A stretch of 64,000 nucleotides of DNA from Monarcha castaneiventris obscurior (lineage: Eukaryota > Chordata > Aves > Passeriformes > Monarchidae): the NCBI GenBank assembly GCA_026261815.1, contig JAMPIT010000511.1:3333001-3397000 (forward strand), in the 5' to 3' direction. The stretch's first letter is position 1; every line of letters starts with the position of its first letter. The position numbers were made by a program, and so were the translations under genes. The notes under the pieces are model-generated. The model made no database searches and was not told where the DNA came from. It worked only from the letters and a program-made list of their open reading frames with translations. Below are positions 9,934 to 56,800 of this stretch, in pieces.

Positions 9934-10287
<354 letters not shown>

Positions 10288-21585: not shown

Positions 21586-22484
21586 AACCTGAAAACTCCA
21601 TCAGCCCTTTCCATGCTTTTAAAACAGTTCTGTTCCTTTGATAATTCCCAGTTGGAGCACAGGGGGAATTCCCATCTCTTCCTGCTCTCCTTTATCCCTT
21701 TGTCTTTCTCCCACTCTTTCTAAATTAATTTTATAATCATCCTTTAAATGATGGAGCAGCTCAAATTAGCTCTTTTAGCTGGAATTACCTGCATTAAAGA
21801 TCTCCCTTAAAAAAGAAAGGCATAAAGGTAATTAATAGCTTCAATTATTATAATGGGGCTTAGCTTGTGCTTTTCTCTTAGAAAAACCTGGTTTTGATAA
21901 GTCAGCTGTTCTTAAAAGGGGAAAAAAAAATAACAGAAGTGCTTCAGGCTGGAAGTTGGCACGAAGGAATTTGGAAATCAGGTTGTTCCCTGTGTAATGT
22001 GAGAGAATAAATTCCTCCCATTGATCCTGGAGCAGTGCCCTGTGCTCCCAACAGCCCGGTGGGAAGGGGAGTGTTCAGAGAGGATTTGGGGTTTTTGCCC
22101 GTTTTTTTTGCTTTATATGAGTTTAAAAACCAAAGGATATTTGTTCAAAGCCACCCTGGAATTTGTGGAGCCTGGAAGTGAATCAAAGGCAAGGGGAAAC
22201 GAGAGGGAGATCTTGAAAGAAGTTTCAGAGCCGCTCTGTGATGGATGAGGGGGAGGCTGGGGATGGCAGAGCTGCTCTGGGGGAGCGGGGCAGGAGCTGG
22301 GTGATGGAACAGGGGCCAGGGAACGGGGCCGGGAGCTGCTCCCAGCTCCCCTCAGCCCCGGGACTCCGGGTGCTGCCCCGGGGAGGGAGCCCAGGCTGGG
22401 ATGGGTGGGAGGGGACCTGGGGATGCCCAGGGCTCCCGGCTGGTCCTTTGGGTTTGCTTCTGCTGCTGCTGGGCACCTGGGTGC

Positions 22485-23350
22485 TGGGTGGGTGGGTGCT
22501 GTGCCCAGCTGGGTGCTGCATCCTGTGCCCAGGTGGGTGCTGTGCCCATCTGGGTGCTGCTCTCAGGTGGCTGCTGTGCCAGGTAAATCCTGTATCCAGG
22601 TGGGTGCTGTGCCCAGGTGGGTGCTGTGCTCAGGTAGATGTTGGCCCAGGTGGGTGCTGTGCCCAGGTGGGAGCTGCATCCTGTGCCCAGCTGGGTTCTG
22701 TGCCCAGGTAGATGCTGTGCCAGGTAACTCCTGAATCCAGGTGGGTTCTGTGCCCCAGCTGTCTGCTGTGTTCTGTGCCGGGTGGGAGCTGTGTCCTGTG
22801 TCCAGGTAGATGTTGTGTTCTGTGCCCAGGTGTGTCCTGTGCCAGGTGTGTGCTGTGCCAGGTGGGTGCTGTGTTCTGTGCTCAGCTGGGTGCAGTGCCA
22901 GGTAAATCCTGTATCCAGGTGTGTTCTGTGCCAGGTGGGTTCTGTGTCCTGTGCTCAGGTGGGTGCTGTGTTCTGTGCCAGCTGGGTGCTTTCCAGGCAA
23001 ATCCTGTGCCCAGGTGTGTCCTGTGCCAGGTGGGTGCTGTGTTCTGTGCCCAGGTGTGTCTTGTGCCCAGCTGGGTGCAGTGCCAGGTAAATCCTGTGCC
23101 CAGGTGGGTTCTGTGCCGGGTGTGTTCTGTGTTCTGTGCCCATTTGTGTTCTGTTCCCAGGTATGTTCTGTGCCAGGTAAATCCTGTGCCCAGGTGGGTT
23201 CTGTGCCCAGGTGTGTTCTGTGCCCAGGTGGGTTCTGTGCCGGGTGGGTTCTGTGTTCTCTGCCACCTGGGTGCTGTGCCAGGTAATTCCTGTGCCCAGG
23301 TGTGTCCCTTGCTCAGGTGTGTCCTGTGCCCAGGTGTGTTCTGTGCCCAG
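22485..23350. repeat. CAGGTG-rich minisatellite, about 17-bp units
   Basis: About fifty units of the type gtgctgtgcccaggtgg vary to ctgtgccaggtaaatcc and ctgtgttctgtgcc. Most units have CAGGTG or CAGGTA. On the minus strand this gives CACCTG, the same core as the array at 13.56 kb but inverted. Open frames across it are periodicity artefacts. Confidence 0.93.
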
Positions 23351-23724
23351 CTGGGTGCCCACACCCGCTGTTGGTGCTGCCAGTTCTGCTGTCCCAGTGC
23401 AAACTGGAGCGTTCCCAGTGAAACCTCCCTGGCTTTGCCTTTTCCTGCTGGTGAGCAGTGCCAGCACTGCCTGGATCCCTGTTCCAGCCCAGCCCCTGTG
23501 GGATTTGGGGAGGCTCCTTGGTTCCATGTGGGTGAGCTGTGCTTGGGAAGTGGCTCCTGATTCCAGGGGATCACCCTGGGCTGGGCAGCTCTCTCTGGTT
23601 TGTTTGATGTGCACAGGCTGAGGGAAGCTCAGGACAAATCTGCTGCTCTTTTTAAACTCGGCTGTTTCACCCTCGGATTTGAGCCTCATCTCTAGTTTAA
23701 GAGAGGAGAAGCGTCTGAGTGTGA

Positions 23725-23780
23725 TGCTGCGCTTGATCATCTTAAAACTCTTTTCCAACCTTGCCAGTTCCATGATCTGT
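23725..23780 (+). mobile_element. Short CR1 3' tail
   Basis: The segment tgatcatcttaaaactcttt, then tccaaccttgccagttccatgatc, resembles a diverged CR1 terminus. Confidence 0.4.
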
Positions 23781-25017
23781 GTTGCCACATTCCCTCAAAA
23801 ACCTGTTTAAAAGCAGAAACTGAAGCAGGAGGGGCTGTGCTCAATATCTGCCCCCCCAGAAACTCAAAGCAGAACAATCTCAGTGATTGGCATTTAGAAC
23901 ATTCTGTCATTGATTATTTTTTCTCTCCGGCTTTTAAGGAGTTATAGATTCTTCAGCCTGAAATTAATGTATTGGAATTTCTGTGGGCAGAATAAAGCCC
24001 TCATTAAATTTTGCAACGTATCAAACAGCTTGCAATTAAAATTCATTTTGAGGCGAGTTAGCAGAAGTTTTGTTAATGTTTAGCATCTTTATGGGTGTCA
24101 TTCTTTGGAAATTTGGACTAATTGAGTCCAAAGGGACAAACTCCCGGATTCTGCATTTGCTGTGGATGCCAGGCCTCGCTTCGCTTTTGGCATTTTTCCC
24201 CTTCCTTTATGCAAGTTCTGATTTTTGCAAGTTGCCAGGAAAGTAACTTATTTTGGTTTTTTCTGCCAAATTGCCGAGAATCCATCTTCCTAAATCTCGG
24301 AAAGACTGCAGCAAATCTCTGGGAAAGACAAGCAAGGCTCCACTGACTCCAAGGTGTTCGTTGCTGTGAAATATGGGAGATTCCAAATCGGATTTTTTAG
24401 GTTTTCCTTCTAAAAAGGTTGTTCAGAACAAGCTGCTCTGGGCATGCAAAAGCCTTGGCTGGGCTCATGTTTGTATCCTGAAGTTGGGAGGTTTCCTTGA
24501 CTGGAGCATAAACCAGCCTGAAACATTTGGGATGTGAATTTTCGTGTTTCTTACTCCCCTTAAATCTTTCCCCTGAGATCCCAAAGCAGTTCCCAGGAAG
24601 CAGAAAAAGCAGTGGGAATTATTTCCCTGTGGAATCCGAGACCAGAACCTGACCTGGCAGAGCTTTAAAATTCCCCTGGAGGAGGAGAGGTCAGTTTGCA
24701 GAGTTGGTGCTTTGAAGACTCTTCCCAGCAAAGCCAGATTGAATTTATCCCAAATTTATCCAATCCAGGGTAAAATCTGGAGCAGGGCTGCACTCCTCGA
24801 GCACCATCAGCAACATCCCACTCGGAATTGGCTCTTAAGGCACTTCATTGATTGAAGGGGGAGAGAGTTCATCTAAACTGGGGATAATTCTGGGAACTTC
24901 CTGGCGGATTTGGCTGCTCTGAGGCTGCTCCAGGCTTTGATTTAAAGGCAGCAGCACAAATGAAGCTGTCACTGCCCGGGGCTGGAGCTGCGGAGTCTCC
25001 GAGCACTGGGGTCCTGC

Positions 25018-25570
25018 ACAGGTGGTGCTCAGATGCTCCTAGAAGATGAGGAATTCCAGAGAATTCCTGGAGGTCTGGCGAAGGAGGTGCTCAGATCCTC
25101 CTAGGACACGTGGAATTCCACAGAATTCCCGGAGGTTCTGCAAAGGAGGTGCTCAGATCCTCCTAGAACATGAAAAATTCCAGAGGAGTCCAGGAGGTCC
25201 TGTGAAGGAGGTGTTCAAATCCTCCTAGAACACATGGAATTCCAGAGAAGTCCAGGCTGGCTGTAAAGGAGGTGCTCAGCTCCTCCTAGAACACATGGAA
25301 TTCCACAGAATTCCCGGAGGTCCTGCAAAGGAGGTGCTCAGATCCTCTAGAACACATGGAATTCCAGAGAATTCCAGGAGGTCCTGCGCACGAGGTGCTC
25401 AGATCCTCCTAGGACACGTGGAATTCCAGGGAATTCCAGGAGGTCTTGCACAGGAGGTGCTCAGATCCTCCTAGGACACATGGAATTCCAGAGAACTCCA
25501 GGAGGTCCTGTGAAGGAGATGCTCATATCCTCCTAGGACACGTGGAATTCCAGAGAAGTCCAGGCTGGCT
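25018..25570. repeat. 61-bp minisatellite, nine units
   Basis: Units begin at ggtgctcagatcctcctag and contain acacgtggaattccagagaa, then a ggaggtcctgcaaagga-like end. Starts near 25025, 25086, 25147, 25208, 25270, 25332, 25394, 25456 and 25517 give a 61-62 base period. Several units carry paired EcoRI-like gaattc sites. Confidence 0.93.
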
Positions 25571-27030
25571 GCAGCTGGTTGTGTCCTGCCAGGTGACACT
25601 GCTGCCACACCCTGCCTGGTCCAGGACCTGCATGGAATCTCTCCGTCCCCGGGGCAGGACATGGTGTCTCCCTCTGAAGTGGATGAAATTCCCCCTTTTC
25701 CAGCCTCCCTCAGAGTGGGACTGTGCCCGTGAGGTCCCTCAGCTGCTCCCAGGGGTTTGTGCAGGGCTCTGTCCCATCTCCCACCTCATTCATGAAGGAT
25801 CATCACTGGCCCCACGTTGTGAAGGTGGATTTTTTTTTTTCCCAGCAGAAAGTGGACTCAGTGTCTGCTGCCTTTCCCAGAATTCTGCCTCATTTCAGAC
25901 TGGAGAATGTTCCACGAGTTTTTATCAGCTCAGACCCTGGGAAACAGGGAATGATAGGTGAGTGAGCAGTGCCCCAACTCCCATCAGCCGAGGGGACAGA
26001 GTGCAGAAGGTGCACGTTGAACTCTGAGGAGCTGGGAGAGGGAGAGAAGCTCGGAGCAGCAAAGGGCAGACGGAAAGCAGCTGTAAAAAGCGGGAAATAA
26101 TAAAGCAGAACCCACTGGCAGCGCTCAGGAGTTCCTGCAGCTGGGAAGACTTCACGTCACGTTAAGGTCACCCACAGAGGCTTGTGCAAAAAACCATTTT
26201 GCCCTTGTGCAGTTCTCACTCTGCTGCCTTGGCAGCTCAGATCTCTGCACTCGGGGGTCGAGGGCTCTTCATCTTCCCGGGAAAGCCGCGGAGCACCGGG
26301 GCCCGGAGCAGCCCCGGCCCGGCTCAGCCCAGGTTGTGATGCTCAGCCCTGCCCAGCCCTCCCCTCCCCTCAGGAGCTTTGGTCTCCTGGTGGAGCTGCT
26401 CTGGAGAGCAGCAGGGAAGGATTGATGTGTTTGTTGTGTCTGGGAGGCAGGGCTGGGTCTCTCTCAGCACCGGGATTAAGGCAGGCGGGGAACTCTGCCG
26501 TGATTCCTCAAGGATCGGGGTCATTCCAGGAGGTTTGTTCACCCCTGGCCGTGTAAACCTTTCAGGGACTGAGTGGGGTGTGTGTTCTTCTCTTCACACA
26601 CTCCCAGGAACAGGGTGGGGTTGTGGGGGTGGCTGTGCAGGCCAGGAGTTGGACATTGATGATCCCTGTGTGTCCCTTCCAGCATATTCCATGATATTCG
26701 GGATGTTCCTTGATTCCATGGTGGTGTTCATGTGTGCGTGCCCATCTTCACCCTCCTGGTGCAGCCAATAACGTGGATCATCCAAATAAGTTCATCCCCA
26801 GTTTGAAGATGGCAGCTTTGCCATCCCCATCTCAGTCACATCCAACTTTATCAGCAGCCACTGGGACTCTGCAGCTGATGGGGACAGGGTAGAAAATGAA
26901 CTTTGTCAATTCAAGCAATTTCTTAACCATAATTAATCGCTTTTTACCTGGGGGCTGGGCTCTCCTTTAGGGCAATCTGATGACAGTTTTATTTTTCACA
27001 TAGAAGAGAAATGAATATTTTTTTAACCCT

Positions 27031-27085
27031 AGAATGGTTTGGGTTGGAATGGGTCTTAAAGATCATGTAATTCCAACCCCAAACA
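27031..27085 (-). mobile_element. Short CR1 3' tail
   Basis: The stretch agaatggtttgggttggaat, followed by gggtcttaaagatcatgtaa, is a CR1 terminus. Confidence 0.65.
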
Positions 27086-30084
27086 TAATGTGGATGTTGT
27101 TAATTTGGGGTATTTGACACATTCTGGGGTATTTGGTACCCTGCCTGTGAGAACCACAGCTCCCATCCCTGCCCGATGGAACTGGAGTGTTGTGGCTTTC
27201 AGTGAAACGAGGAAGTTCCCAAGCAACCCCGTATTTTATCAATGTAAATGATGAATGCTGGGAAAGCCAAAACTGGGTCTGTCAAGCTGCTGCTCCACTT
27301 GCACTTCTGATAACTCAGCTGCTGCTTTTTTGGGGGGAAACGAAAAGAAACAGATGGGTTTGGAGTTGGGTGGGGGTGGTGCATATTGGAAGACCCATTC
27401 CATTATCTCCCCTCAAACTGGGACTGGGGATTTCCCCTCCCCAAGGACTGCAGGGCAGGGGGCATCATCTGTGCTGCCCCTGGGAATGGGAGAGCCTGGA
27501 AATCTCGGGAGCGTCCCGTGCCGGGTGCAGGGATGAGCTTGTTCCTGCGGTGATCTGTGATGTAAATCAGAGCTAACAAGGGGGGCAGGCTGTGCTGCCT
27601 CTCCCCGAGCTGTGCAGATGGGGATGAGCTCCGAGATGCTCAATCTGTGCCTTCCTGCCTGCAAGATGGGCTTCAAAGAGCCGAGCTGTTGTTCCCTCGC
27701 CGCGGTCCTGGTGGCTCTCGGCGCCTTGTGCCGCCGTGGCTTTTTGGTCCCATTAAAATCAAGCTGTGAACAAAAGCAGGTTATTGATTTTTGAGACCGG
27801 GAGGATCCTTTGGCAGGCAGTTAATGAGCAGAGAGCTCTTCCAGGCTCTGATTTTTCGAAGGGTGTTGAAGTTGTAACATCTCAGTTAATGTGTGACAAG
27901 GAGCTTGCAAAGCCTCCCAGTCATGCAGAACGAATCTGTTCCTAAGTGGGGGTTTAGGGGAGGCCTCTGCTGGGTTTGGCTGCTGTGGATTAGTCCCCAA
28001 AACCTTTTTGGGTGTCCATGAGTGAGAAGAGAGAAGAGGGTCCCTCTTCAATGGGCACTTCTTGCTGTTGGGATTCACTGGGGTGACTCTCATCACCCTC
28101 TGGGGGCACAGACACAGCCTCAGCCCCAAAGCAGCGCCTTCAAAGGCTCAAATCCTCACTGCAGCCTCGAGAAGGAGTTGCAGGGGTTGGTTTGGGGGGT
28201 TCATTGTGGTGCCAAGCTGTGGGATACTCCTGGTGTATCCATGAACATGGACAAGGCCACGTGTGGGAGCAGCACTGCAGAGAAATCTGTTAAATGAATC
28301 CGCTGTGCACGAGCCCTCCAGTGCTTCCCCTGCTATTGCTGCGCCACAAGAGCATCTTGTGCACACAAAGATGAAAATTGCTGGGATGAGAAGAGTGGAG
28401 CTGGATGAGGGAGGTGGGCTGGAGTGCCACTGTTCCCTCTGAACGAGAGGGGATCTCTGCAGAGGCACAGCTCTCGTGCTGTCGATGGGACTGCGAGTGC
28501 AGCAGCCGTGTCTCCGTGCTGGGACTTGGTGGTTTTGTGCTCAATAATTGGATTTTTTTAGGCTGGGTGTGGGGGAGTACAGGAAATTCTGGGTTGTTTA
28601 CCCAAACGTTGAAGTCCCAAATGTGTTACATAGCTGTGATCCAGCACCTGTTGTGGCAGATGTGTGTTGGTGCCCCTGGTCAAGCACAGGGATGTGGATT
28701 TCGGAGGGCTGTGGATGAAGATCTGTCACTCCTGGCTTTTCCCTTCTGCTCCAAAACTCGTCCCCTTTGAAGCCCCCACATGGAGAGGGCAGGGACAGCA
28801 GATCCCAAGGACAGGGACAGCAAATCCCACCCTGGACAGCTCTCAGGTGAACCCGTTCAGCTGACCTGAAGGGAGCGTTGTCTAGGCAATTCCCAATTTC
28901 CCTCATTTTTCCCTGAGCAGTGACAAGACAGGCAGCACAGATAAAAGTTCCATTCCTGGGTCTGTAACAATGCCTTTAACATTAGTTCTGAGCACATGAA
29001 AAAGGCGCTGAGGCTCCCAACGAGCCAAAATTGTGCCAATACTGACAGAAACCATTTTCTGCAGTTGGTTTATTGCAGGTTTTAACTACAGCGTGGAAAG
29101 CAGAGGAAGAAACCCACCCCAGGCCCATGAGACACGTTCCCCCCATAATATCCATATTTATCACTCACCCCCCTCCTCCATCAGCTGCCTGCAGCTCTTC
29201 CAGGATCATTGTTTCCTCTTCGCTGCTGGAAGGCATCTCCCAAACTGTTATTTCCCCTTGTTAATGTTCTGCTCTCGCAGTTAATTCCATCTCCAGTCTC
29301 CACACCGTTAGTGGGAAACACATCCAGGTGGATAACTACCAATTTCCAGTGCACTGTTTTCCATCTCTTCCTGTTCTCTTCTCACTAGGAGATTTCCTGC
29401 TGCAGGTAACTGGAATTTGATGGTGTGTTCTGAGCTGGCAGAGTTGTCCTTCAGCCTCTCAGGTGGCATTTTGGCTGAAGGGACTGGTGGGAATGGCCAG
29501 ACTGGGAGTTTATTGGGGTGTGTTTGTAAAAAGTGGATGTTTGCAGGCAGAGCTGCAGGAACTTGGAGCCATTCCTCAGCACCAGCCCTGTGTGATGGGT
29601 TCAATTGAGTGGAACCTGTGTTCCAACTTCCCTGAGCCTGATTTTGCCTGAGTGCTGCTTGTTTATGGAGTTCACAGGCTGAGGGATGGGGGGACGCAAA
29701 GATTCCGTGAAAAGCGTAATTGGCTGGGTGATATCTGGGGCCTTTCTGACCACTTCATATTTGTAACGTGCCAAAAATAGCTGCTCCTTCTGCTGGAGCC
29801 ACGGCTGCTGCAGCTGGGAATAGATTTTAATTGATGGATCCTGTCAGGCTCCCGGCGGCCGTGCAGGCAGGAGAACCATTAAAGTGAGATTTCTTGTCCC
29901 TGCTCACTTAAACACTCTGCTACCAGCTCATGGCAGCCTTGCAGCTTTCCCTTAATATCCCCAGCCTTTGTACCCATATCCTAGGGCCGTATCCCGGGAT
30001 TTGAGGTTTCCCAGCAGGGAGAGCCGCTGGCCACGGGCTTTGTGTCCTGGTGTTACAGGTGTGCAAAGAATGTGTGTTACTGTG

Positions 30085-30565
30085 CATGGAATAAGGGCCA
30101 TGAACACCTCGGGAGTTGTTTGTGTGGAATAAGGGATGGGAACACCTTGGGAATTGTGTGGAATAAGGGATGGGAACACCTTGGGAATTGTTTGTGTGGA
30201 ATAAGGGATGGGAACACCTCGGGAGTTGTTTGTGTGGAATAAGGGATGGGAACACCTCGGGAGTTGTTTGTGTGGAATAAGGGATGGGAGCACCTCGGGA
30301 GTTGTTTGTGTGGAATAAGGGATGGGAACACCTTGGGAATTGTGTGGAATAAGGGATGGGAACACCTTGGGAGTTGTTTGTGTGGAATAAGGGATGGGAA
30401 CACCTCGGGAGTTGTTTGTGTGGAATAAGGGATGGGAACACCTCGGGAGTTGTTTGTGTGGAATAAGGGATGGGAGCACCTCGGGAGTTGTTTGTGTGGA
30501 ATAAGGGATGGGAACACCTTGGGAATTGTGTGGAATAAGGGATGGGAACACCTCGGGAGTTGTTT
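30085..30565. repeat. 34/38-bp minisatellite with 186-bp higher-order period
   Basis: About thirteen units of ggaataagggatgggaacac followed by ctcgggagttgtttgtgt (38 bp), or a shorter form ending ttgggaattgtgt (34 bp). The order of long and short units, and a gggagcacc variant, repeats after 186 bases, so blocks of five were duplicated together. Confidence 0.92.
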
Positions 30566-31084
30566 GCTGGAGACTTTTGGAGCTTGGGAAAAAGGTGGCA
30601 TTGAACTGGGACTCTGGGATGTGACCTTGTGTGGCTGGGATGTGACCATCCCTAAAGGAACCTGGACAAAGGCTGTGGTCGAGAGGAGAAACTTCTCTGA
30701 GGCTCCTCCAGCAGGGTCAGGGACCCGTGTGCGTTTGGGCTCTGAGTTTGTGCACCTTCCCAAGGCTTTTTCCTGGGAATAGCTGTGTTTCTGTGTTCCC
30801 TGCACCCTCCTTTTTGCCCATCTGCATTGGCTGTGCCTCCTCCCCAGCTCCAGGACCTGTTGCTGGAGGACCAAAAACCCCTCCTTTGCAGAGGGAGCCT
30901 ATTTTGACTCCTGGTTTGGAGAGGACTCATGGCTGTTCTCCTCACGGATGTGCAGGAGCATCCATCCCCACCCCACCCAGCCTCCCCGTCACCCACGAGG
31001 GCGCCAGCTCCGTTCAACCGGAATTACTGCCCTGCCCAAAGACACCACAGCGAGCCAGGGTTTGCTGCAATAACAACTCGGAAA

Positions 31085-31090
31085 TTTATT
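31085..31090 (-). terminator. Polyadenylation signal AATAAA of the nested gene
   Basis: The + strand reads tttatt here, i.e. AATAAA on the minus strand, about 195 bases past the TGA at 31283-31285. It is the first canonical signal downstream of the HMG-box frame. It implies a short 3' UTR that runs through the 20-bp minisatellite. Confidence 0.5.
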
Positions 31091-31099
31091 GGGACTTCC

Positions 31100-31297
31100 C
31101 AAGGCACTGCAATCACAGGTGGGAACTGCAATCACAGGTGGGAACTGCACTGTCAGGTAGGAACTGCAATCTCAGGTAGGAACGGCAATCTCAGGTAGGA
31201 ACGGCAATCTCAGGTAGGAATGGCAATCTCAGGTAGGAATGCAATCTCAGGTAGGAACGGCAGTCTCCGGCAGGAACTGCAGTCACAGGTAGGACAT
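31100..31297 (-). repeat. 20-bp minisatellite in the presumed 3' UTR of the nested gene
   Basis: About ten imperfect 20-bp copies on the + strand read like ctcaggtaggaacggcaat, with caggtgggaactgcaatcac variants at the left. The array begins shortly before the AATAAA (in transcript terms, just after the stop codon). It even covers the last codons of the frame, where the stop lies in a copy-like caggtagga context. Confidence 0.8.
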
Positions 31298-31744
31298 GAG
31301 GAAATTCCGCAGGCTCGCTGCCCTGGTGGTGAAGGAGACCATGATGTTCCTCAGGGCCCTCCTCCGGCTGGACATCCTCGGGCCCCTGCTTCTGCTCCTG
31401 CGGGCCCTCCTCCTGCCCCTCATGTAGTCGGCCATGTCCTTGTACATGTCCTTGTCTCTTTCGGGCAGCCTCTGCCACATGCGGCCCAGCCTCTTGGCCG
31501 TCTGCGCCATGCTCATGTGGGGGTACTTCCTCTGGAGCCGCCGGCGGTGCTTCTCCATGAAGATGAAGAAGGGCGGCAGCGGGCGCCCCGAGGACCTGAA
31601 GCGGACGCTCTTGGCAAAGCGCCTTGCCCTCCTGGCCCGGAGCCGGGAGTGGGCCCTGCCGAAGCGGCGCCGGGGCCTCTGGATGGTGATGCGGAACAGC
31701 ATCGTGGTGCTGGGCGCCCTCCCCGAGCGCACCGGCCGGGCCAT
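31283..31744 (-). CDS. Nested single-exon HMG-box, arginine-rich protein (candidate avian HMGB4 counterpart)
   Basis: This intronless frame of 153 codons plus TGA lies antisense inside the 46.3-kb CSMD2 intron. The ATG at 31744 is the first in-frame ATG and sits in a strong Kozak context (gcggccATGG). The frame stays open upstream only to a GTG near 31909, which I do not accept as a start. The protein has about 41 Arg but only 6 Lys and no Cys. Residues 1-53 are Arg-rich. Residues 54-109 form one HMG box, with PFFIFMEKH, a YP pair, AKRLGRMW (core Trp 90) and Tyr 101. The tail from residue 110 is again Arg/Ser-rich. The box resembles the second box of remembered mammalian HMGB4 (R-P near the start, H..L.R..P, S..Q.AK..G.MW), and human HMGB4 is also intronless and antisense within CSMD2. 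Box A is missing. I infer a nuclear DNA-binding, spermatid-chromatin type protein. Function and orthology are untested. Confidence 0.72.
   Translation of the reverse strand: MARPVRSGRAPSTTMLFRITIQRPRRRFGRAHSRLRARRARRFAKSVRFRSSGRPLPPFFIFMEKHRRRLQRKYPHMSMAQTAKRLGRMWQRLPERDKDMYKDMADYMRGRRRARRSRSRGPRMSSRRRALRNIMVSFTTRAASLRNFLMSYL
31418..31585 (-). other. HMG-box domain of the nested gene
   Basis: This segment covers residues 54-109 of the nested protein. It carries the hydrophobic cluster FFIF at the start of helix 1, the Tyr-Pro that ends helix 1, the motif AKRLGRMW in helix 2 with the hallmark Trp, and Y-K-D-M-A-D-Y in helix 3. The SOX/TCF signature (RPMNAFMVW) is absent, so it belongs with HMGB-like boxes rather than sequence-specific SOX boxes. 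Confidence 0.8.
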
Positions 31745-31929
31745 GGCCGCGCAGGGCTGCCCGGGCTGGGCCGCTCTGGCTGCTCTGGCTGCTCCTGCTC
31801 CCTCTGCTCCTCGGGCCCCTCTGCTCGAGTTGCGCTGCTGCGAGGCTGCGGAGGAGCGCGAGGCTGCGCTGCCCCTCAGCACCGGCCGCTGGAGCGCACT
31901 GAGCAGCACGGAGCAGGAACCGGCCAGGG

Positions 31930-32045
31930 CACCGCGCCGACGTCACCGCGCCACTGTGACATCAGGCTCCAGGGGCCAATCGGTGTGGGCCAGGCCGGCT
32001 CCCTGCAGTGCCATTGGCTGGAGGGGTGTGCTGATGTCATAGTTG
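31930..32045 (-). promoter_or_regulatory. Candidate proximal promoter of the nested HMG-box gene
   Basis: Upstream of the ATG on the minus strand there is a GC-rich stretch. It holds a near-perfect CRE (CGACGTCA on the + strand, 31938-31945), a second CRE-like 8-mer (TGACATCA, 31957-31964), a CCAAT pentamer (31976-31980 on +), an opposite CCAAT (ATTGG on +, 32013-32017) and a third CRE-like TGATGTCA (32032-32039). No clear TATA box is seen. CRE plus CCAAT promoters without TATA are common in CREM-driven spermatid genes, which would suit an HMGB4-like gene. The motif positions are observed; promoter function is inferred. Confidence 0.45.
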
Positions 32046-32640
32046 GGGAGCTGGAGAGGGTTTGCGTTGATGTGGAAGCGCTGCCGTGTGTGGAACGTTG
32101 GGGTGGGCGGTGGTGATGGCGCCGGGCCGTGGTGACGTGAGGTTCCCAGAGACGGGCGGGAGGGGCCAGGCCTGGTCCCTGGAACTCTGGTGGCTGGAGG
32201 GGTGTGATGATGTCATAACCATGATGGCGGAGCAGATCTTGGATGAGTTGGGAGCGCTCCATGGATGGAATTTTGGGATGGGATGTGGTGACCTCACTGT
32301 GCAGTGGGGACACATTCCCAAAGCCGATGGGGAGGGGCCAGGCCTGGTTCCTGTAACCCGGTTGGCTGGAGGGATGTGATGATGTCATAGCCATGATGAT
32401 GTCACGGCCGTGGTGATGGAGCAGGTCTTGGTTGAGTTGGGAGCGGAGTTTTGGGACATGACATGGGGACATCGCTGTGCCATGGGGACATCACTGTGCC
32501 CTGGTGCCATGTGGTCTCCCAGGCCCACCAGGAGGGGCCAGATCTTCTTCCTGTAACCCTGTTGGCTGGAGGGACGTGATGATGTTGTAGCCATGATGAT
32601 GTCATAGCCATGATGAAGTCACAGCCATGATGACATCTCA
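32000..32640. repeat. Four-copy promoter-like tandem repeat with CRE-like motifs
   Basis: Diverged units share a core of aggggcca, then about 30 bases, then ggctggaggg(g/a)(t/c)gtgatgatgtcata. The ggctggaggg starts lie at 32016, 32192, 32364 and 32564, spacings of 176, 172 and 200 bases. Copies carry TGATGTCA (CRE-like) at 32032-32039, 32208-32215, 32380-32387, 32397-32404 and 32597-32604. The first unit overlaps the candidate promoter of the nested gene, so the array looks like an amplified promoter or upstream region. Confidence 0.7.
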
Positions 32641-34911
32641 TCCCTTCACCCCAGGCTGTGCCCCTGCTCCAGCGCCGGGATTTTGGCTCTGTTTCTCACT
32701 CGGTGTTTTACAAACCTGTAACACCCAAGGAGGGAAGTGGAGGCCTCGGATTTTTTGTCATGATAAAATGTGGAGCCGCCGCTCGCCGCTGCGAGGTGGC
32801 AGCTCATAATGGGAAAATGGTTTAGTAGCAGCCCTAAAAATAATTGTCTGTGACAGCTGTTCCTTGGTTCCTGTCAGGAGAACCACTGTTATTTAAATCC
32901 ACAGCCCTTGGACTCCATGGCTAATTTATTTGGGTGGACTTTTCATTAATTTGAAAGGTTCTGCGGGTTTAAAAGCCTTCATTAATTATGCTCTAGCAGA
33001 TGAAAATGCAATAAGGTTCTGCAGGTTTGTCTGGGAAGAAAAGAAATTCCCAGCGGTTTGTTTGGTTGTTTCCAAAAGGTGCAATCAGTCGTTCCCAGGC
33101 AGAGGTGAGCTTGGCTGTCCCCGTCAGAATTCTTGTGACTGAGGACAGGACTATGAATAAAACAAATTGAAATTTTGACCACTCATTCCGAGTACAAGGT
33201 GATTTATTGAAGTTCCCAGTAGTGTTAAATATTCATATGTAGCCGATTGCATAAGTGCTAAATTATGAAACAGCCCCAGCTTCTGTAGAACTTGTCTCTG
33301 CTGAAAGGTAAAGATGGGGGAGCAGAAGCCTTGGAAGTCGGGAGTCATCCCTGAGTTCCACACGGATGACTTTGGAACTGTGTAATTCCCGTGCAATTAG
33401 GACGTGTGTAATTGCTGGGCTGGTTAATCCTGGCAGAGAGGGGCCGAGGACTCGGGGGGCTCTGTGGAAGCTCGTGGTGAAATCCAGCCTGGCCAGACCG
33501 TGCTGCCCAGTTCCCCTCCTGTGTTTACTCCAGGTTGTTTTGCAGTGACCTCAGCCTGGTAAATAAACTCCGTTTGTCCCACCAGCCTCGTTCCTTTCAT
33601 GTCCCGCCTCTCCCTGCAAGCCGAGAGGGTGATTTGCATTCCATTTATCTCTCCCACTCTCCCTTCCCTTGTTTCCTCTGCTCTCCAAAGAGAACCTGCC
33701 CTGGTGATTATTCTGGGGCAATGAAATAATTTCATTCCAGCAGTCACAGGTCCCTTCAGCAGGTGCTTTATTATCTCAATAATTCAGCCTAAGAGACTTT
33801 TCAGGCTCCCCAATTCCCACAGTTCAGAAGCTACAAATAAAACTCTTTTGCTCTTTCCCTGATTTGGTTTATTTAGCCTTTTTTTTTTTTTTCCCTGTGT
33901 TCTTTCCAGATCCTCCCCAGGAATTATATTCAAATGTGGAATTGATGCTGTTCAGTCCAAGTGCCTTAAGGGGTGCATTGTGTTAAAATGCACATAAAGG
34001 CAGCGCTGTCCCACTTGGGCTGGGTCATTTATAAAATTCACTTCCAATCGAGGCCATTTATCTGAACTCAGCACGATGTTTGCTCATGTCCCTGGATTAC
34101 CTACATCCTCCATCAAAATAGGTCAGCTGGGTCCAGGGAAATCTGGGATAGAAGCGCTGGAATAAACAGAGGGCAGGGCTGGGGTGGGACACACCCATCA
34201 ATCCTTTCTCGCTCATGGAGTTGGGTTTAACCCACTACCACTTCTGTGAGGCTTCTGCAGGCAGAGACGCCAGGACAAAGCAGCTTTATTGCACCAGTTT
34301 CCTCTTTTATTAGGGAATTTTTGGGTTTTATTTAGGATTTTCACGTGGAACAGTGATTGTTAAGGACAAATCGTTTGTGGGGAGCAGAGCCCAGGAAAAC
34401 CAGGCTTTGAACACATGAAGACACTGCAGAGCTTTTCCTGTGGCTGTGGCTGCTCCAGGTATTGGTTTAATCCCAGGAGTACACACGACAACATCCTGGA
34501 ATTGGTGATTCAAGGGGATTTGTGTTCATTTTCCTGCCTGGACCTGAACAGGTCCTGAGGCTGTGCTGAGACACCTCAGTGCCAGGATCCCACCAGGGCA
34601 GAGGGTCCAGATGTGTCCTGGGACTGCCCAGACCTGATTAGGAAGGAAAGACTTTGCCACCAGTCCTGGCAGAAACAAAATCTTAGTTGTGAACCTGTTT
34701 GGATTTGCAGCGAAAAGCAGAATTTACAAAGCTTGTATTTAGCAGAGAATATTGTAGCCAAAGAGGGAAAATGAAAAAACTCCACAAAAAATCACAAAAT
34801 GCCCCAAAACCCCCTCACAGACCTTGGCCAATGCTCTGCCTCCCCTATCAGGTAATGAGTGTTGCTGAAGGGATGGAACTGGCTCCAGTTTGCCGTGGTG
34901 GGTGAAAATTC

Positions 34912-35258
34912 CATGCCAGGAGGAGACTGGAAAAAAACCAAATAGGAATAGAGGTTATGCTTTGAAAAACCTCTGGGGTGACCCTCAGCAGCACTGGAGG
35001 AGGGGTGGCAGCATGGGATGAATCCCTGAGGGGAAGGACTCCTCACTCCAGCCTGCAAAAGCCAAGGAGCAAGTCTCCCAGACTCTGGAATTAAGGCACA
35101 ATGAGGATTCAAGGAAATCTCAAGGAGTGGAATAAAAAGCTTTTACCCTAAAAGAAGAAAACAGCACAAGTGGGAGGGACGTGTCCCACGTGTCCCATGT
35201 CTTCCAACCCAACCCATTCCACAATCCCGTGGCTCTCTTCCCCTCGGCTCTGCACGAG
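34912..35258 (-). repeat. Left arm of a large inverted repeat
   Basis: The reverse complement of this segment matches 36402-36757 at roughly 90% by eye over about 350 bases. Shared stretches include gtgcagagcc, tcttcttttagggtaaaagc, ggctggagtgaggagtcctt and gaggtttttcaaagcataac. The arm includes a short CR1 3' tail (about 35195-35235). Confidence 0.9.
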
Positions 35259-35764
35259 TCAAAGGCAAGCCAGGAGAACTCACAGGAGGAGAAGACTCCG
35301 TGTGAATTGCAATTAATGTTGAGGTGAAACTGTTGCCAGAGCACTCCCAGCAGCGCTCCCAGTCCCTGCCTCGTCAGGAGCAATCCCTGCAATACACAGC
35401 AGCTCCTCATTGGAAAGAACAAGTTTTTACTGTTACTTGAAAAAAACTGGAAGTGAAAACAGCCTCTTGACAGAAACCATCAGGACACACCAAAGAAAAA
35501 AAACCTGAAGCGGGAAGATGAGAAAAATGTCACTGCTCGTAATGATGTTAATTAGGAGGTAAATGAATGTTGACATTTGAGAGCTGAGCTGAAAGGATCA
35601 GACGTGTGAAGGTGTGGAGGATCTGTGTGGAGTCTGATGGAGGGAGAAGCTGAAATGTCTGAAGGATTGCCATTCCTGCAGGAGCAGAAGAAAGGAGAAG
35701 GTTCAGCATTGTCTTTGTTGGTTCTCTTAATGCCACGGGGTGAATCCAGCATTTAACAGTTTCA

Positions 35765-36118
35765 TGTCTTGTAGTAGAACAGGGACAAGAGCGAACGGAA
35801 GATTTCGTGATGTGACGGAAAGCAGAAAGCAGCGTGTAACCTTCCTCCCCTTCATTCCTCTGTGATAAGAATTACTCTAAACAATACAGCCCTTCATAAC
35901 CCCAGTAGCTTTACACCCCTTACTAACTTTTACCATCCCACCGTCCCCCCTCCTGACGTAGAGAAACCACCTCGACTATATAACCCCACGAAGTAGAACA
36001 ATAAAGCGCCATTTTGACCATCTGCCATATTGGTGCTGTGTGTCTGTGGCCCAAGCAGCTTGGGGGCTAGGCCGAGCTGCCGTGCCGGGTTCTTGAACCA
36101 GGTCGCCACTGCCTCACA
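35765..36118 (+). mobile_element. Candidate solo LTR, plus orientation
   Basis: The block begins tgtcttgtagtagaacaggg and ends near actgcctcaca, giving TG...CA ends. Inside are a TATATAA box (35977-35983), an AATAAA signal (36000-36005) and a U5-like stretch with ggttcttgaaccaggtcgcc. It sits in the loop of the large inverted repeat. I could not identify a target-site duplication, so the ends may be off by some bases. No gag, pol or env sequence adjoins it. Confidence 0.6.
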
Positions 36119-36401
36119 TACCGAGAGGCATCAATGTCTCGGACTCTTCCCTCTGATTTGGGATGGCAGGAAAAGGTCTCAGCACGGGGATGGGGCCTTA
36201 AAAGTCCCAAGGCGAATAGGAAATAGTTTATTTTCTAATCTGGTGCTATTGTGGTGTATTTTTGCATTTATTACAGGTACAGGTGCTCTCAGGTGTGTAA
36301 AGCTGAGCTCCGAGGCTCTGTCTGAGTCCCTCTGTAGTTCAGGTGTGCTCAGCCCACCCTGGGTGCCTGAGCTGCTCTCGTGGTGTTTGCTGTGGTTTTC
36401 C

Positions 36402-36757
36402 CTCGTGCAGAGCCAAGGGGAAGAGAGCCACAGGATCGTGGAGTGGGTGGGGTTGGAAGACATGGGACACGTGGGACACGTGGGACACGTCCCTCTCACT
36501 TATGCTGTTTTCTTCTTTTAGGGTAAAAGCTTTTCATCCCATTCCTTGAGAATTCCTTGAATCCTTATTGTGCCTTAATTCCAGAGCCTGGGAGACTTGA
36601 TCCTCGGCTTTGCAGGCTGGAGTGAGGAGTCCTTCCCCTCAGGGATTCATCCCACGCTGCCATCCCTCCTCCAGCACTGCTGAGGGTCACCCCAGAGGTT
36701 TTTCAAAGCATAACCTCTATTCCTATTTTTTTTTCCAGTCTCCTTTTTCCTGCCATG
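36402..36757 (+). repeat. Right arm of the large inverted repeat
   Basis: This is the partner of 34912-35258. The arms are separated by 1,143 bases that include the plus-oriented LTR. The right arm has one extra copy of a 9-base gacacgtgg unit (near 36468-36489) and a longer T run than the left arm. Homology stops at both inner and outer edges. Confidence 0.9.
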
Positions 36758-37544
36758 CTTTAGGGATCAGGGAGGTCTCTGCCCTGGGAAGCAGGGCTGC
36801 CTCAGGCATTTCCCAGCTTTAGGGCCTTGTGCTTCCAGATCCTCCCGGGAATGCTGCAATGCACCAGGAGAATCATCTCCCTAGAGGTGCCGTGCCCTTG
36901 TCCTGCTCACTCCATTCTCAAACCCAGTTTATCCCCTTTGCAATGTGGATTTTATGCTCCCTACTCCCTCCTTTACCCCTTTATTGTCCTGTTGGGGAGT
37001 GAAGGGGAAGGGAGGGGAATGGTCCCTCTCATGCTGCTGAAAGCTGCACGCCATAAACTCTTTACTTTCCCTACAATTCACACCGTGTTGCCTTTTATTC
37101 CTGCCCCTTTTTAATGTGAGTAGTTACTCCTGTTTCCCACTTTAATGCAATTACAGCACACTTCTCCTTCCCCAGATCCCAGGAAGGTGCCCAGCCTGCT
37201 CAGCCATTAAGTGGCATTAAATGGAGTAATTGCAAGATTAGGTTCCTTCGGCCGGGCCATAAAGAAATGCCATTACAGAGGAACTGCAGGAGAGCGCCTG
37301 GAGAATCAGGCTTTGAGGCTGAAAGCTCTGCAGGCACATTTTTATTGTTATTGACCACCCCAGAGCCTCTGGGAGAAGGGAGCCAAGGGCATTCCTGGGG
37401 TTTTTGTCCTCTGAGAAAGGAGTGAAGGCAGGAGTGGCTTCATGTGGGGCGGGTGGGATCAGCTGGGCTGTAGTGAGAATTAAAAATGTAATTGTCAGCC
37501 CTGGGAGGCACAGCTGTGGTGCTTGTCCAGCTCTGGATCCTCAG

Positions 37545-38165
37545 CAGGGACAGGGAGCTCCTGGAGCGCTGTGGAGATGAGGAAGGGCCTGGAGCATCTC
37601 CCTGCCCAGGGAAGGCTGAGGGAGCTGGGGCTGCTCAGCCTCAAGAGGAGCCCCAGCTGAGAGGGGCCTCAGCCCTGGGTGCCCCTGGGTGCCCCTGGGT
37701 GTCCCTGGCTGTCCCTGGGTGCCCCTGGGTGCCCCTGGCTGTCCCTGGGTGCCCCTGGGTGCCCCTGGGTGTCCCTGGCTGTCCCTGGGTGCCCCTGGGT
37801 GCCCCTGGCTGTCCCTGGCTGTCCCTGGCTGTCCCTGGGTGCCCCTGGGTGTCCCTGGCTGTCCCTGGGTGCCCCTGGCTGTCCCTGGGTGCAGGGAGGG
37901 TCAGGGCAGGGCCCAGGCTCTGCTCCAGGGCCCAGCAGTGGCACCAGAGGAACAGGCAGGGCCTGAGCCCAGGCAGTTCCACCTGGACACAAGGAAGAAC
38001 TTTACTGTGGGCACTGGAGCAGAGCCTGGAGAGGGGCTGGAGTGTCCTCACTGGGATATTCCAGAGCCCTCTGTGCCCTGTGCTCTGGGATGGCCCTGAG
38101 GTGGGACCGGATGAGCCTCTGTGGCCCCCTAAACCTGACCCACTCCAGGGTTTTGGGATTCATCC
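37545..38165 (+). mobile_element. CR1 fragment interrupted by a minisatellite
   Basis: The left part (ggctgagggagctggggctg, ctgctcagcctcaagagg) and the right part (ctggacacaaggaagaactt, ggctggagtgtcctcactgg) read as consecutive pieces of a CR1 3' region. The short 10-bp array at 37676-37893 lies between them. Confidence 0.65.
37676..37893. repeat. 10-bp minisatellite inside CR1
   Basis: About 21 units of cccctgggtg or tccctggctg type occur in mixed order, so that 30- to 60-base blocks recur. Confidence 0.92.
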
Positions 38166-38374
38166 CCCCCAAATGCGTTTATTTGGCTGGTCCCAGGTGA
38201 AGGTATTCCAAAGCTCTGGCTGTGTTTTTATTCATGAGGAGATCGTTTTACTGCCTTCTCTGAGGCTGTCACCAAGGCCATCACCTCACCAGCTCACAGA
38301 TGGCTCATGGCTGTCCCTGTTCCCTCTCTGGGCTGGGCATGTAGAACTCCTAGGTGAGCTGATGTGCTTGGATG

Positions 38375-38853
38375 TGGGAGTTAGGTACTCCACACAAATC
38401 CGAGTTCTTTATCTTCACCTCTGGGGAGCTTTACCTCGAGCCCCAACAGATGAGAAACGGCTGCAGATGTTGTTTCAGGTTGTTTATTTCTCCTTCTCTC
38501 TGCCAGCTCTCAGCTCCGGCCGCACATCTGATGCAGCCGAGTCCGAGCGGGCACTGCCCAGCCCTGGGCTGTCCCGGCCTTTTTGTGCCCTTTCCATCAT
38601 CCAACCATTCTTCACAACGCATTTATTAGTTACTGTTCTGTACCAATTCATTTGCACCTATTCTAGACATGGAATTTCTACCTCTTTTTCATTCTACCAA
38701 TCATTTTGTGCCACCACCACTAGAGAAGATGGAGGAGAAGGAGAACAGGGCAATGCCCAAAATCGTCCATCTTAAACCCTTCGTCCTCATATTAAAAACC
38801 CTAAAATCGACTTTTTTACCTTGTAAAATACTAAACCACTACTCATTTTCACA
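38375..38853 (-). mobile_element. Candidate solo LTR, minus orientation
   Basis: On the minus strand this reads from TGTGAAAATGAG through a U3-like region and an AGAAATAAAC polyadenylation signal (gtttatttct on +, near 38480-38490). It ends in a U5-like stretch with ctgttggggctcg. Such an order (U3, AATAAA, then a gggGCTCG-type end) is typical of retroviral LTRs. No internal viral genes are seen. The boundaries are approximate. Confidence 0.55.
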
Positions 38854-40919
38854 CTCTGGTGGCTTGCAATGATTCTGGCAGTGTTGGTAACTTTTCCCAT
38901 GGGCTGAGGTCAAAGCCGGTGCCATTCTGGGCTCCTTGCCAGGGTCTGGGACCCCCTTGCTGGGGCTCCTGACCCCCCAGGGCAGCCCGAGGCGTGCCCT
39001 GAGCTCCCAGGGCAGCCAGAGGTGTGCCTTGGATTCCAACACTTGAAGGTGAAGGGATCCCTCCTGCATCCTCAGGACGTGGTGGCCGTGGGCTCCCAGC
39101 ACTCAGACCTTGTCACCAACATCGCTCTGCTTCATCCCGAGCCGCCCCTCACGCAGAGCTCAGCCCTGGTGGCATCCAGAGAGCAGGGGGGACATGAAGG
39201 ACAGGCAGAGGCACCTGAGAGCGAGGGCAGGGGACGCTGGAGCTGATAAGGAGGTGACTGGGGAGGAACGGTTTGAAATGCTGCATGTAAATGTGGGAGC
39301 ACTGAGTCCCCAGATAAGATGCCGGTGGGTGAGATAACAAAGGTTCAGGGAGGGCTGATCTCGGGAATGCTTCCTGATAGCGGCTGTGCTCGGAAGGAAT
39401 TCGCTGCCTGCTTTTCCTTGATAGGGAGGTGACCTCCCTCTGCTGCCCGCCGGGGTTTGGGGTTGGTATCTGGATAATATTTGTCAACAGAACAGACCAA
39501 ACACCGCCTTGATCTCTGTTCTAACGCACCTGCTGTTTGTTCCGGGGATTTTCAGCAGAGAGGCAGAGAGGGGAGGGTGTGTAATTTAATCTCCTGGCTG
39601 TAAAAATCCATTTCTGCTTGTACTTGTTGATAATTTAACTGTGACGCAGCAAATGTGAAATGATTCGAGTGCACTTTGATAGAGTTGTCGTAATGAAGGG
39701 TGATCTGTACCCACAGGTACAGGGTGGTGCTCACAGTTTGATGGATGACTGGCACAATTTGGGGTTTTTTCCCATTATTTTGGTGTTGATTGTCCTCCAG
39801 ATATTAATAAGATTCTTTTACCACTGCCCTCTCTGCAGTACCCTCATCAGGGCTCCGTAAAATAACCATTTTTGTTTGAACTAAAGAACTGACTGGAGGA
39901 GAAAGACCAGGTTTGGATCAGGGTGGATTTGTTCCAAGGAACTCCAAGGGCAGAGCGGGATCTCCTGTAAAATGAACATTTTGTGCGGTCATCAGCCGGT
40001 TACAGATGAAATCCTTACATACAGAAGGAGATGTAGGAGTGTTGATTTTAGAAAAAGAACAGAAATTATCCCTTGGAGCGAAACCAAACCTGTCAGTCCT
40101 GGCTGGTTTTGTCTGTCTGGGGAGATGAGTGCCTTGAGTACCTGTCTGGGAGGGCTGAAAATAGACAGGGAGGGGTTTGGGATGAGGGGAAATCGCAGCC
40201 TGGAGAGGCTGGGGGTGTGCTGGGAATGCAGGCACTGGGAGAGCCGGAGCTTCCCCAGCTCCGCAGTTCTGATCCCCTTTTCCCGGGGGAGACTCGCCCA
40301 GCTCAGCTCCAGCTCCTGGGGTGATGCCTGCGGTGATTCCTGGGTAAATGGAGCCCTTTTGGATTGTGGCACCCGCTCCTTTTTCCTGTGTTCCCTCCAT
40401 TCTCCCCCTTGTTGCTGGTCAGGCACCCCGGTGTTCCTGTGGGAGCTGGTTTTGCTGTGATCCAGGGAAAGCTGACTCTTGGCCGACCCAGAGGAATATT
40501 TCCAGGAGCTGTGGGTGCTGTGAAGTGCTCAGAGGAGGTTGTGGCCATCAGCTGCTGCTGGCTCTTGTCCCTGAGGTGCCACAGGCAGGTCCCAGCCAGG
40601 AGCAGGTGCTGCAGGCACTGCAGTAATTTGGAATTCTCACATTTTCCCACATTTTCCTGCCCTGGAGGAGATCCTGCTGCTCTTCTGGAGTCACAGCAGC
40701 ATCCCAACACCAGGTCTGGGCACTCCATCCAACCCTTTTCTCCCCACACATCCCCGGGAACATTGGATTCCCAGTGGGATTCCACTGAAGAGCTCTGGGG
40801 CACTCAGGGCTGTTCAGAGTTCATAATTTTCAATTCTCATTAAGGATGATGTAATTAATTCAGACATAAAGCAGTGTTGAGTCAACCTTGACACGTGCCC
40901 TGTGAAACTCTCAGCCATT

Positions 40920-41095
40920 CAGAGAATCAGAGAATCCTGGAATGCTTTGGGTGGGAAGGGACCTCAAAGCTCATCCCGTCCCACCCCCTGCCATGGGCAG
41001 GGACACCTCCCACTGTCCCAGGGTGCTCCAAGTCCTTTCCAAGCTGGCCTGGGACACTGGCAGGGATGGGGCAGCCTGTGCTGTGTCCCAGGACT
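40920..41095 (-). mobile_element. CR1 3' fragment
   Basis: The fragment contains agagaatcctggaatgcttt, gggtgggaagggacctcaaa and gacacctcccactgtcccag. Confidence 0.8.
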
Positions 41096-41099
41096 GCAC

Positions 41100-56560: not shown

Positions 56561-56800
<240 letters not shown>

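What the first reader, a model, noticed from the sequence alone, without database searches (positions are those of the whole stretch)
31085..32045. Antisense single-exon HMG-box gene in the CSMD2 intron: candidate avian HMGB4 turned protamine-like
Seen: an intact 153-codon frame with strong Kozak context, a complete HMG box, about 27% Arg against about 4% Lys, CCAAT/CRE-like sites upstream and AATAAA downstream. From memory: human HMGB4 is intronless, testis-specific and antisense within CSMD2, with two HMG boxes. Inferred: the avian locus is its positional counterpart, having lost box A and replaced it with an Arg-rich arm. That would be an HMG protein evolving toward a sperm nuclear basic protein.
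Basis: partly seen in the sequence, partly recalled or inferred. Interest (0 to 1): 0.92.

Follow-up and report, generated by a model that had tools for sequence, protein, structure and literature searches.

The report
Arginine-rich HMG-box gene inside CSMD2
A small intact gene on the opposite strand inside the gene CSMD2 of a probable bird encodes a single DNA-bending HMG box flanked by arginine-rich arms; mammals keep the testis gene HMGB4 inside the same host gene, so this may be its counterpart turned into a sperm-DNA packaging protein.

Summary
A 153-codon single-exon frame lies on the minus strand at 31283-31744. Third-codon-position GC is 95%, a bias confined to the frame; it has the highest codon contrast of 121 ATG frames of 80 or more codons in the window, and 0 of 5000 shuffles reach it. 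Residues 54-111 form a complete HMG box (Pfam 2.4e-12). Both arms are Arg-rich without acidic residues. The gene lies antisense in the 46-kb CSMD2 intron that splits the second CUB domain (CSMD sequences recalled).

Mammalian HMGB4 is intronless, lies in a CSMD2 intron and is called mammal-specific in print. Locus, lack of introns and absent acidic tail fit HMGB4. Against it: one box instead of two, human HMGB4 is the weakest of HMGB1-4 against the box, trees leave HMGB box B, HMGB4 and UBTF box 4 open, and shared residues favour UBTF box 4. No second single-exon HMGB-like gene was seen among the genome matches read.

Most likely an HMGB4-locus gene whose product packs or remodels spermatid chromatin, working like fly HMG-box sperm proteins. 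Expression and other species could not be tested. Filed as HMGB4-like by position, not as an HMGB member.

The parts
31283..31744 (-). Single-exon coding frame, 153 aa plus stop, Arg-rich HMG-box protein
   Evidence: intact frame, GC3 0.95 confined to the frame
31586..31744 (-). N-terminal arm, residues 1-53: 17 Arg, 1 Lys, no acidic residue, no trace of HMG box A; predicted helix 30-48
31412..31585 (-). HMG box, residues 54-111; predicted helices 58-73, 79-92, 95-119; mean pLDDT 94-98 over residues 61-110 in the aligned model
31286..31411 (-). C-terminal arm, residues 112-153: 13 Arg, 0 Lys, no acidic residue, SR/RS dipeptides, then a predicted helix 124-152
31102..31294 (-). 19-bp minisatellite, 10 copies, making most of the 3' UTR and reaching into the last codons
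31085..31090 (-). AATAAA polyadenylation signal; a GT-rich stretch follows (read by eye)
31745..32200 (-). CpG-rich 5' flank (500-bp windows starting at 31541 and 31791 have CpG observed/expected 0.72 and 0.66, against 0.25 for the whole window) with CCAATGG, TGACGTC, TGATGTCA and TGACATCA sites
31970..32616 (-). Four diverged copies of a promoter-like module of 99 bp, start-to-start 172-200 bp; three of four carry TGATGTCA at the matching place (plus-strand letters)
3296..3490 (+). CSMD2 exon, first sushi domain
   Evidence: ends read from splice signals
10079..10286 (+). CSMD2 exon, first half of the second CUB domain
   Evidence: ends read from splice signals
10287..56583 (+). CSMD2 intron that contains the HMG-box gene on its other strand
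   Evidence: flanking exons join in one frame
56584..56696 (+). CSMD2 exon, second half of the second CUB domain
   Evidence: further CSMD2 exons follow in L004

Best explanation
A functional, fast-evolving, single-exon gene at the HMGB4 locus (antisense within CSMD2), probably sharing ancestry with mammalian HMGB4. In this lineage it encodes one B-type HMG box between two Arg-rich arms instead of two boxes. Proposed working: a CpG-rich promoter with CRE-like and CCAAT sites is switched on in post-meiotic germ cells and makes a short unspliced mRNA ending after the AATAAA. The protein enters the nucleus through its Arg clusters. The HMG box inserts its wedge residues (aligned F60 and M79; wedge positions recalled from HMGB1) into the minor groove and bends DNA without sequence choice. 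The Arg arms neutralise the phosphates, so the protein compacts spermatid chromatin as a transition-protein-like or protamine-like factor; SR/RS sites could let phosphorylation loosen it. Shown here: frame, codon constraint, HMG box, arms, CSMD intron, promoter motifs, and no second candidate among the genome matches read. Inferred: common descent with HMGB4, germ-cell expression, DNA bending and sperm function.
For: Codon signature confined to the frame. HMG box by profile E 2.4e-12; PDB sequence matches led by chains with HMGB1 or HMGB2 boxes (two-box chains sum both boxes, the best single-box chain is HMGB2 box B, 39.9 bits, then UBF1 box 4 at 36.1 after another HMGB2 chain and SOX-9 at 34.3); Foldseek with model 2: HMGB1 box B 1hme, probability 1.00, rmsd 1.5. 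Host: recalled CSMD2 fits the CUB2a, sushi and CUB2b exons at 91/76/90% identity against 74/65/82% for CSMD1 and 69/63/68% for CSMD3; downstream exons fit CSMD2 better than CSMD1. HMGB4 lies in a CSMD2 intron of human, mouse and rat, is highest in spermatids and spermatocytes, less conserved than HMGB1-3, without acidic tail; rat relative is Transition Protein 4 (PMC5036535). Own genome with recalled human HMGB4: 19 matches, of which 9 are exons of intron-split HMGB1-3 and one is this locus, E 0.0055. Best non-self own-genome match of the protein is HMGB2 box B, E 1.5e-5. Few retrocopies in chicken, 78 with 57 intact (PMC3136929), so an independent HMG-box retrocopy in CSMD2 is improbable. Arg is about 4% in HMGB1-3, 11% in HMGB4, 27% here (recalled mammalian sequences).
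Against: One HMG box only. Of recalled HMGB1-4, HMGB4 box B scores lowest against the box (phmmer 22.7 bits against 37.4 HMGB2, 30.5 HMGB1, 25.7 HMGB3), and tblastn of HMGB4 against the window did not list the locus at E 10 while HMGB1-3 did. In the first tree the box joins UBTF box 4 weakly (90/42). Shared derived residues: UBTF box 4 8 (null mean 1.97, p 0.0002), HMG20A 8 (p 0.0044), SOX9 7 (p 0.004), SOX2 6 (p 0.039), HMGB4 only 4 (null mean 1.6, p 0.057). Which CSMD2 intron holds mammalian HMGB4 was not checked, and its antisense orientation there is recalled. No transcript, second species or dN/dS. CRE-like sites are inflated by tandem copies.
Confidence: 0.55

Rival explanations
1. A real gene, but an independent retrocopy of another HMG-box gene (UBTF box 4 region, HMGB2 or a SOX-like source) that happened to land in CSMD2; not HMGB4.
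For: The box groups weakly with UBTF box 4 (90/42), the closest row by identity, 21 of 59 against 20 of 59 for HMGB2 box B and 18 of 59 for HMGB4, and shares 8 derived residues with it (p 0.0002). The own-genome UBTF box 4 exon (L021, name recalled) is among the next matches, E 0.0051.
Against: HMGB2 box B is the best own-genome match, E 1.5e-5. Tree support is weak and long branches are in play; with own-genome boxes UBTF and HMGB4 fit about equally (p-AU 0.47 and 0.401). A chance landing in CSMD2 is improbable given few avian retrocopies. The UBTF and HMGB2 exon matches are both cut by introns, so scores are not strictly comparable.
Confidence: 0.25
2. A real HMGB4-locus gene whose product is not a sperm packaging protein but a nuclear regulator, for instance in neurons or in meiosis.
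For: Mammalian HMGB4 is also expressed in neuronal cells and alters gene expression (PMC5036535) and is called a transcription inhibitor (PMC9202578). Arg content (27%) is far below true protamines (recalled).
Against: Size under 200 aa, pI about 12, one HMG box and near-total replacement of Lys by Arg match the description of fly HMG-box sperm proteins (PMC9917458). Adult HMGB4 expression is highest in testis.
Confidence: 0.15
3. A chance or decayed open frame in GC-rich DNA.
For: Frames this long are common here by chance: 126 of 500 shuffles. The last codons come from a minisatellite.
Against: GC3 of 0.90-1.00 only inside the frame, 0 of 5000 shuffles reach the contrast, complete HMG box, no stop or frameshift.
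Confidence: 0.03

Closest known systems
Mammalian HMGB4 (and rat HMGB4L1 / Transition Protein 4)
   Same: HMGB4: intronless, in a CSMD2 intron, B-type HMG box, no acidic tail, basic tail, less conserved than HMGB1-3 (PMC5036535, PMC9202578; antisense orientation and basic tail recalled)
   Different: HMGB4 has two boxes and more Lys than Arg; this has one box, 27% Arg and two Arg-rich arms; sequence trees do not join them with support
Drosophila HMG-box sperm nuclear basic proteins (ProtA/B, Mst77F, Prtl99C)
   Same: Mostly under 200 aa, mostly pI over 10, mostly a single HMG box (PMC9917458, passages seen)
   Different: Independent origin; insect; sperm role shown there and only inferred here
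HMGB1-3
   Same: Box B gives the best sequence matches in PDB (HMGB1, HMGB2) and in the own genome (HMGB2)
   Different: Intron-split genes with two boxes, Lys-rich, acidic tail
UBTF box 4
   Same: Highest identity over the box (21 of 59 positions)
   Different: Large multi-box, intron-split nucleolar factor gene (architecture recalled); no second box here
Bird protamine
   Same: Arg-rich stretches with SR/RS dipeptides
   Different: Protamines have no HMG box and far more Arg (recalled)

Membership tests
HMGB4 | Lies within an intron of CSMD2 | tested here: met
   with recalled CSMD sequences; the same intron as in mammals not tested
HMGB4 | Intronless gene | tested here: met
   One uninterrupted frame with codon bias from ATG to stop; own-genome HMGB2 box B is split by an intron. 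A non-coding 5' exon is not excluded
HMGB4 | Two HMG boxes | tested here: not met
   One Pfam box; HMGB box A sequences align only to the same box (residues 59-129), none to residues 1-53; one weak gapped HMGB4 hit touches residues 4-16 with linker and box B start; no box A upstream
HMGB4 | No acidic C-terminal tail | tested here: met
   0 of 42 residues after the box are Asp or Glu
HMGB4 | Sequence closer to HMGB4 than to other HMG boxes | tested here: inconclusive
   AU tests do not reject HMGB4 kinship (p 0.132, 0.239, 0.401) but do not show it; HMGB4 scores lowest of HMGB1-4; shared residues favour UBTF box 4
HMGB4 | Testis / spermatid expression | not testable with these tools
   No expression data on hand
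HMG-box domain (PF00505) | Profile match over the curated cut-off and three-helix fold | tested here: met
   47.5 bits against 25.4; three helices in both models; the 50 Foldseek matches shown of 96 are HMG boxes, best E 0.0057
HMG-box sperm nuclear basic protein (fly type) | Under 200 aa, pI over 10, HMG box | tested here: met
   153 aa, pI about 12, one box
HMG-box sperm nuclear basic protein (fly type) | Protein present in spermatid or sperm nuclei | not testable with these tools
   Needs proteomics or antibodies
UBTF-derived retrogene | Groups with UBTF box 4 with support, or further UBTF boxes present | tested here: inconclusive
   Support 90/42 and no second box; p-AU 0.485 and 0.47 when held together

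The most novel reading that the evidence does not exclude
HMGB4 is not mammal-specific: the CSMD2-intron HMG gene predates the split of mammals and sauropsids, and in birds it shed box A and swapped Lys for Arg, becoming a vertebrate HMG-box sperm nuclear basic protein, convergent with the fly HMG-box protamines.
Probability: 0.42. Interest if true: 0.82.

Novelty: new variant of a known kind. Interest (0 to 1): 0.62.

Why it matters
HMGB4 is described in print as mammal-specific (PMC9202578, passage seen). A counterpart in the same host gene of a probable bird would move its origin back to the amniote ancestor. It would also give a vertebrate case of an HMG protein drifting toward a protamine-like composition; in the papers seen here an HMG-box origin of sperm proteins is described for flies (PMC9917458, passages). 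The origin of sperm packaging proteins would become testable in a group with many sequenced genomes. The ten paper searches made listed no report of an avian HMGB4 or of such a bird protein; six of them showed only the best 20 titles, and only open-licence PubMed Central papers are held.

Tried and rejected
Chance frame: rejected by codon signature and HMG box, although frame length alone is unremarkable. CSMD1 or CSMD3 as host: disfavoured by exon identity with recalled sequences (CSMD1 also). A second HMGB4-like gene elsewhere: none recognised among 19 matches with recalled HMGB4, 21 matches with the protein itself, self included, and 57 HMG-box matches. Of these 57 only 13 span 58 or more of the 69 profile positions: 9 SOX-type, 3 HMGB box B exons and this gene (names recalled; read). 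Only 24 of the 57 were read; the counts are lower bounds per the tool. In one search two minus-strand matches (L009, L013) were read on the wrong strand and told nothing there; several loci (L020, L027, L028, L033, L037) were likewise misread; L013's place was read properly as L056. A standard protamine gene in this genome: the search with a recalled chicken protamine had 0 candidates, and the tool states that this shows nothing; left open. Relatives in viral contigs: 11 stretches matched a pattern, none is a relative. Rfam on the window: 0 matches. NCBIfam: one sub-threshold hit, ignored. The single-sequence structure was poor (mean pLDDT 64.8, best Foldseek E 0.03). The second model (82.3) used an alignment of ten own-genome HMG boxes, so its fold is not wholly independent evidence. 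In one search, 24 boxes were listed; 3 with stops (L050, L051, L063) and the duplicate of the query (L058) were dropped before the tree, and the query and a recalled human HMGB4 box B were added (22 rows).

Full report
What is there. On the minus strand an ATG at 31744 opens 153 codons to a stop at 31283-31285, with 41 Arg, 6 Lys, pI about 12 and net charge about +41. Length alone is not striking: 126 of 500 dinucleotide shuffles of the region give an ATG frame of at least 153 codons, and the region itself holds a longer one of 243. Two other tests are decisive. First, Pfam HMG_box matches residues 54-111 at E 2.4e-12, 47.5 bits against a cut-off of 25.4. Second, GC at codon positions 1, 2 and 3 is 0.47, 0.59 and 0.95, and the third-position bias is confined to the frame: 0.90-1.00 in 90-base windows wholly inside it, 0.43-0.87 in those wholly outside. 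Choosing codons for the same protein at a background GC of 0.74 gives at most 0.86 in 1000 draws, and at 0.80 at most 0.91. The contrast, 0.42, is first of 121 ATG frames of 80 or more codons in the window; 0 of 5000 dinucleotide shuffles of the coding stretch reach it, the largest being 0.195. The bias holds in N arm, box and C arm alike (0.96, 0.97, 0.93), so I infer that all three have long been coding.

The protein. Residues 1-53 hold 17 Arg, 1 Lys and no acidic residue; residues 112-153 hold 13 Arg, no Lys and no acidic residue; there is no Cys. PDB sequence matches are led by chains with HMGB1 or HMGB2 boxes (the first an SRY/HMGB1 fusion); two-box chains sum both boxes, and among single-box chains HMGB2 box B leads with 39.9 bits, UBF1 box 4 has 36.1, SOX-9 34.3 (similar). 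AlphaFold2 on the single sequence was weak (mean pLDDT 64.8) but already showed helices 58-73, 79-91 and 95-116. With ten HMG boxes of the same genome aligned (A1), residues 61-110 reach mean pLDDT 94-98. The 50 Foldseek matches shown of 96 are HMG boxes, nearly all with probability 0.97-1.00 and most with rmsd 1.0-2.5, though no E-value is below 0.001 (best 0.0057). Positions that are invariant or nearly so in A1 (R67, P75, L86, W90, K98) are kept. The wedge positions known from HMGB1 box B (recalled) align to F60 and M79.

The surroundings. tblastn with a recalled CSMD1 N-terminus found three collinear exons on the plus strand: first sushi, first half of the second CUB, second half of the second CUB. 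Splice signals, read by eye, put them at 3296-3490, 10079-10286 and 56584-56696. Recalled CSMD2 fits them at 76, 91 and 90% identity, against 65, 74 and 82% for CSMD1 and 63, 69 and 68% for CSMD3. The genome stretch after the window carries the next exons, again closer to CSMD2 than CSMD1. The CSMD2 letters were typed after these exons had been seen and may lean on them. So the HMG gene is antisense in the 46.3-kb CSMD2 intron that splits the second CUB domain. Its 5' flank is a CpG-rich patch: the 500-base window at 31541 has observed/expected CpG 0.72, sharing the top value of 183 intron windows with one at 47541; the whole window has 0.25. It carries CCAATGG (-273), TGACGTC (-201), TGATGTCA (-220) and five TGACATCA sites from -295 to -860. 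The six TGAYRTCA sites exceed shuffles (mean 0.06, maximum 1 in 500), but most belong to a module present in four tandem copies, so they are not independent. A 19-bp minisatellite fills most of the 3' UTR and AATAAA starts at 31090.

The genome. The window lies at 3.33-3.40 Mb of a 3.88-Mb contig in an assembly of 1,076,902,112 bases. Size and contig suggest a bird microchromosome; simple CR1-tail patterns were absent from the window, so 'avian' remains inference. The protein's only non-self match at E 0.001 or better is HMGB2 box B (E 1.5e-5); at E 10 or better there are 21 matches from 22 candidates, self included. Recalled human HMGB4 gives 19 matches from 34 candidates: three exons each of the HMGB1, HMGB2 and HMGB3 genes, four TOX-type and five SOX-type boxes, and this locus at E 0.0055 (names recalled, not every box was read). 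The HMG_box family gives 57 matches from 87 candidates; 13 span 58 or more of 69 positions, of which 9 are SOX-type, 3 are HMGB box B exons and one is this gene (read). No second single-exon HMGB-like gene was seen, but only 24 of the 57 were read.

Is it HMGB4? For: HMGB4 of human, mouse and rat lies in a CSMD2 intron, lacks the acidic tail, is less conserved than HMGB1-3, and in adults is highest in testes, in round and elongating spermatids and spermatocytes; a rat relative is Transition Protein 4 (PMC5036535, passages and the whole discussion). It is said to be encoded by an intron-free gene and to be mammal-specific (PMC9202578, passages). Chicken has only 78 retrocopies, 57 intact (PMC3136929, passages), so a separate HMG-box retrocopy in CSMD2 would be a rare coincidence; this is an argument, not a measured probability. 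Against: one box instead of two, and no box A remnant. Of recalled HMGB1-4, HMGB4 box B scores lowest against this box (22.7 bits; HMGB2 37.4, HMGB1 30.5, HMGB3 25.7), and tblastn of HMGB4 on the window did not list the locus while HMGB1-3 did. Trees do not resolve the box. With recalled boxes (25 rows) it joins UBTF box 4 at 90/42; holding it with HMGB box B costs 4.6 log units (p-AU 0.142), with HMGB4 5.6 (0.132), with SOX 11.1 (0.037), with HMG20A 10.9 (0.043). On box columns only (18 rows): HMGB box B 0.075, HMGB4 0.239, UBTF box 4 0.485, SOX 0.505, HMG20A 0.053, HMGB box A 0.017. With own-genome boxes (22 rows): HMGB box B 0.369, HMGB4 0.401, UBTF box 4 0.47. Among 38 positions where the box differs from HMGB1-3, it shares 4 with HMGB4 (p 0.057), 8 with UBTF box 4 (p 0.0002), 7 with SOX9 (p 0.004), 6 with SOX2 (p 0.039), 8 with HMG20A (p 0.0044), 3 with NHP6A (p 0.13), 2 with TOX and 1 with SSRP1. 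These residues speak for UBTF rather than HMGB4, or for convergence on Arg and Leu. Position and gene structure speak for HMGB4. I weigh the locus more, but not decisively.

How it probably works. Fly sperm nuclear basic proteins arose from HMG-box proteins, tend to be under 200 aa with pI mostly over 10, and 11 of 15 in D. melanogaster carry a single box (PMC9917458, passages). This protein has the same three traits. The likely picture is a spermatid protein whose box bends DNA and whose Arg arms neutralise it. Expression, DNA binding and sperm location are inferred.

Verdict. A real, unusual gene; an HMGB4-like gene by position; not filed as an HMGB family member because the two-box feature was tested and not met. 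New variant of a known kind. Interest 0.62; higher if relatives confirm the descent.

Noticed in passing
window 47291-48290: A second CpG-rich patch in the same intron (500-base window at 47541, observed/expected 0.72, joint top of 183 intron windows) with no convincing coding frame among the frames listed; possibly a promoter or enhancer.
   Followed up: partly
window 31970-32616: Four diverged copies of a promoter-like module with CRE-like sites upstream of the gene, as if the promoter itself had been duplicated.
   Followed up: partly
window 31434-32042, plus strand: A 202-codon open frame antisense to the HMG gene with GC3 0.85; probably a mirror effect of the codon bias on the other strand.
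   Followed up: no
window 30087-30566, about 37650-37920, 59480-60250, 62870-63960: A minisatellite array and repetitive open frames, as often seen on small GC-rich chromosomes (recalled).
   Followed up: no
G000 C277:8976127 and C277:8985232: Two HMG-box exons of equal score about 9 kb apart, each with a second exon of equal score; a possible recent local duplication.
   Followed up: no
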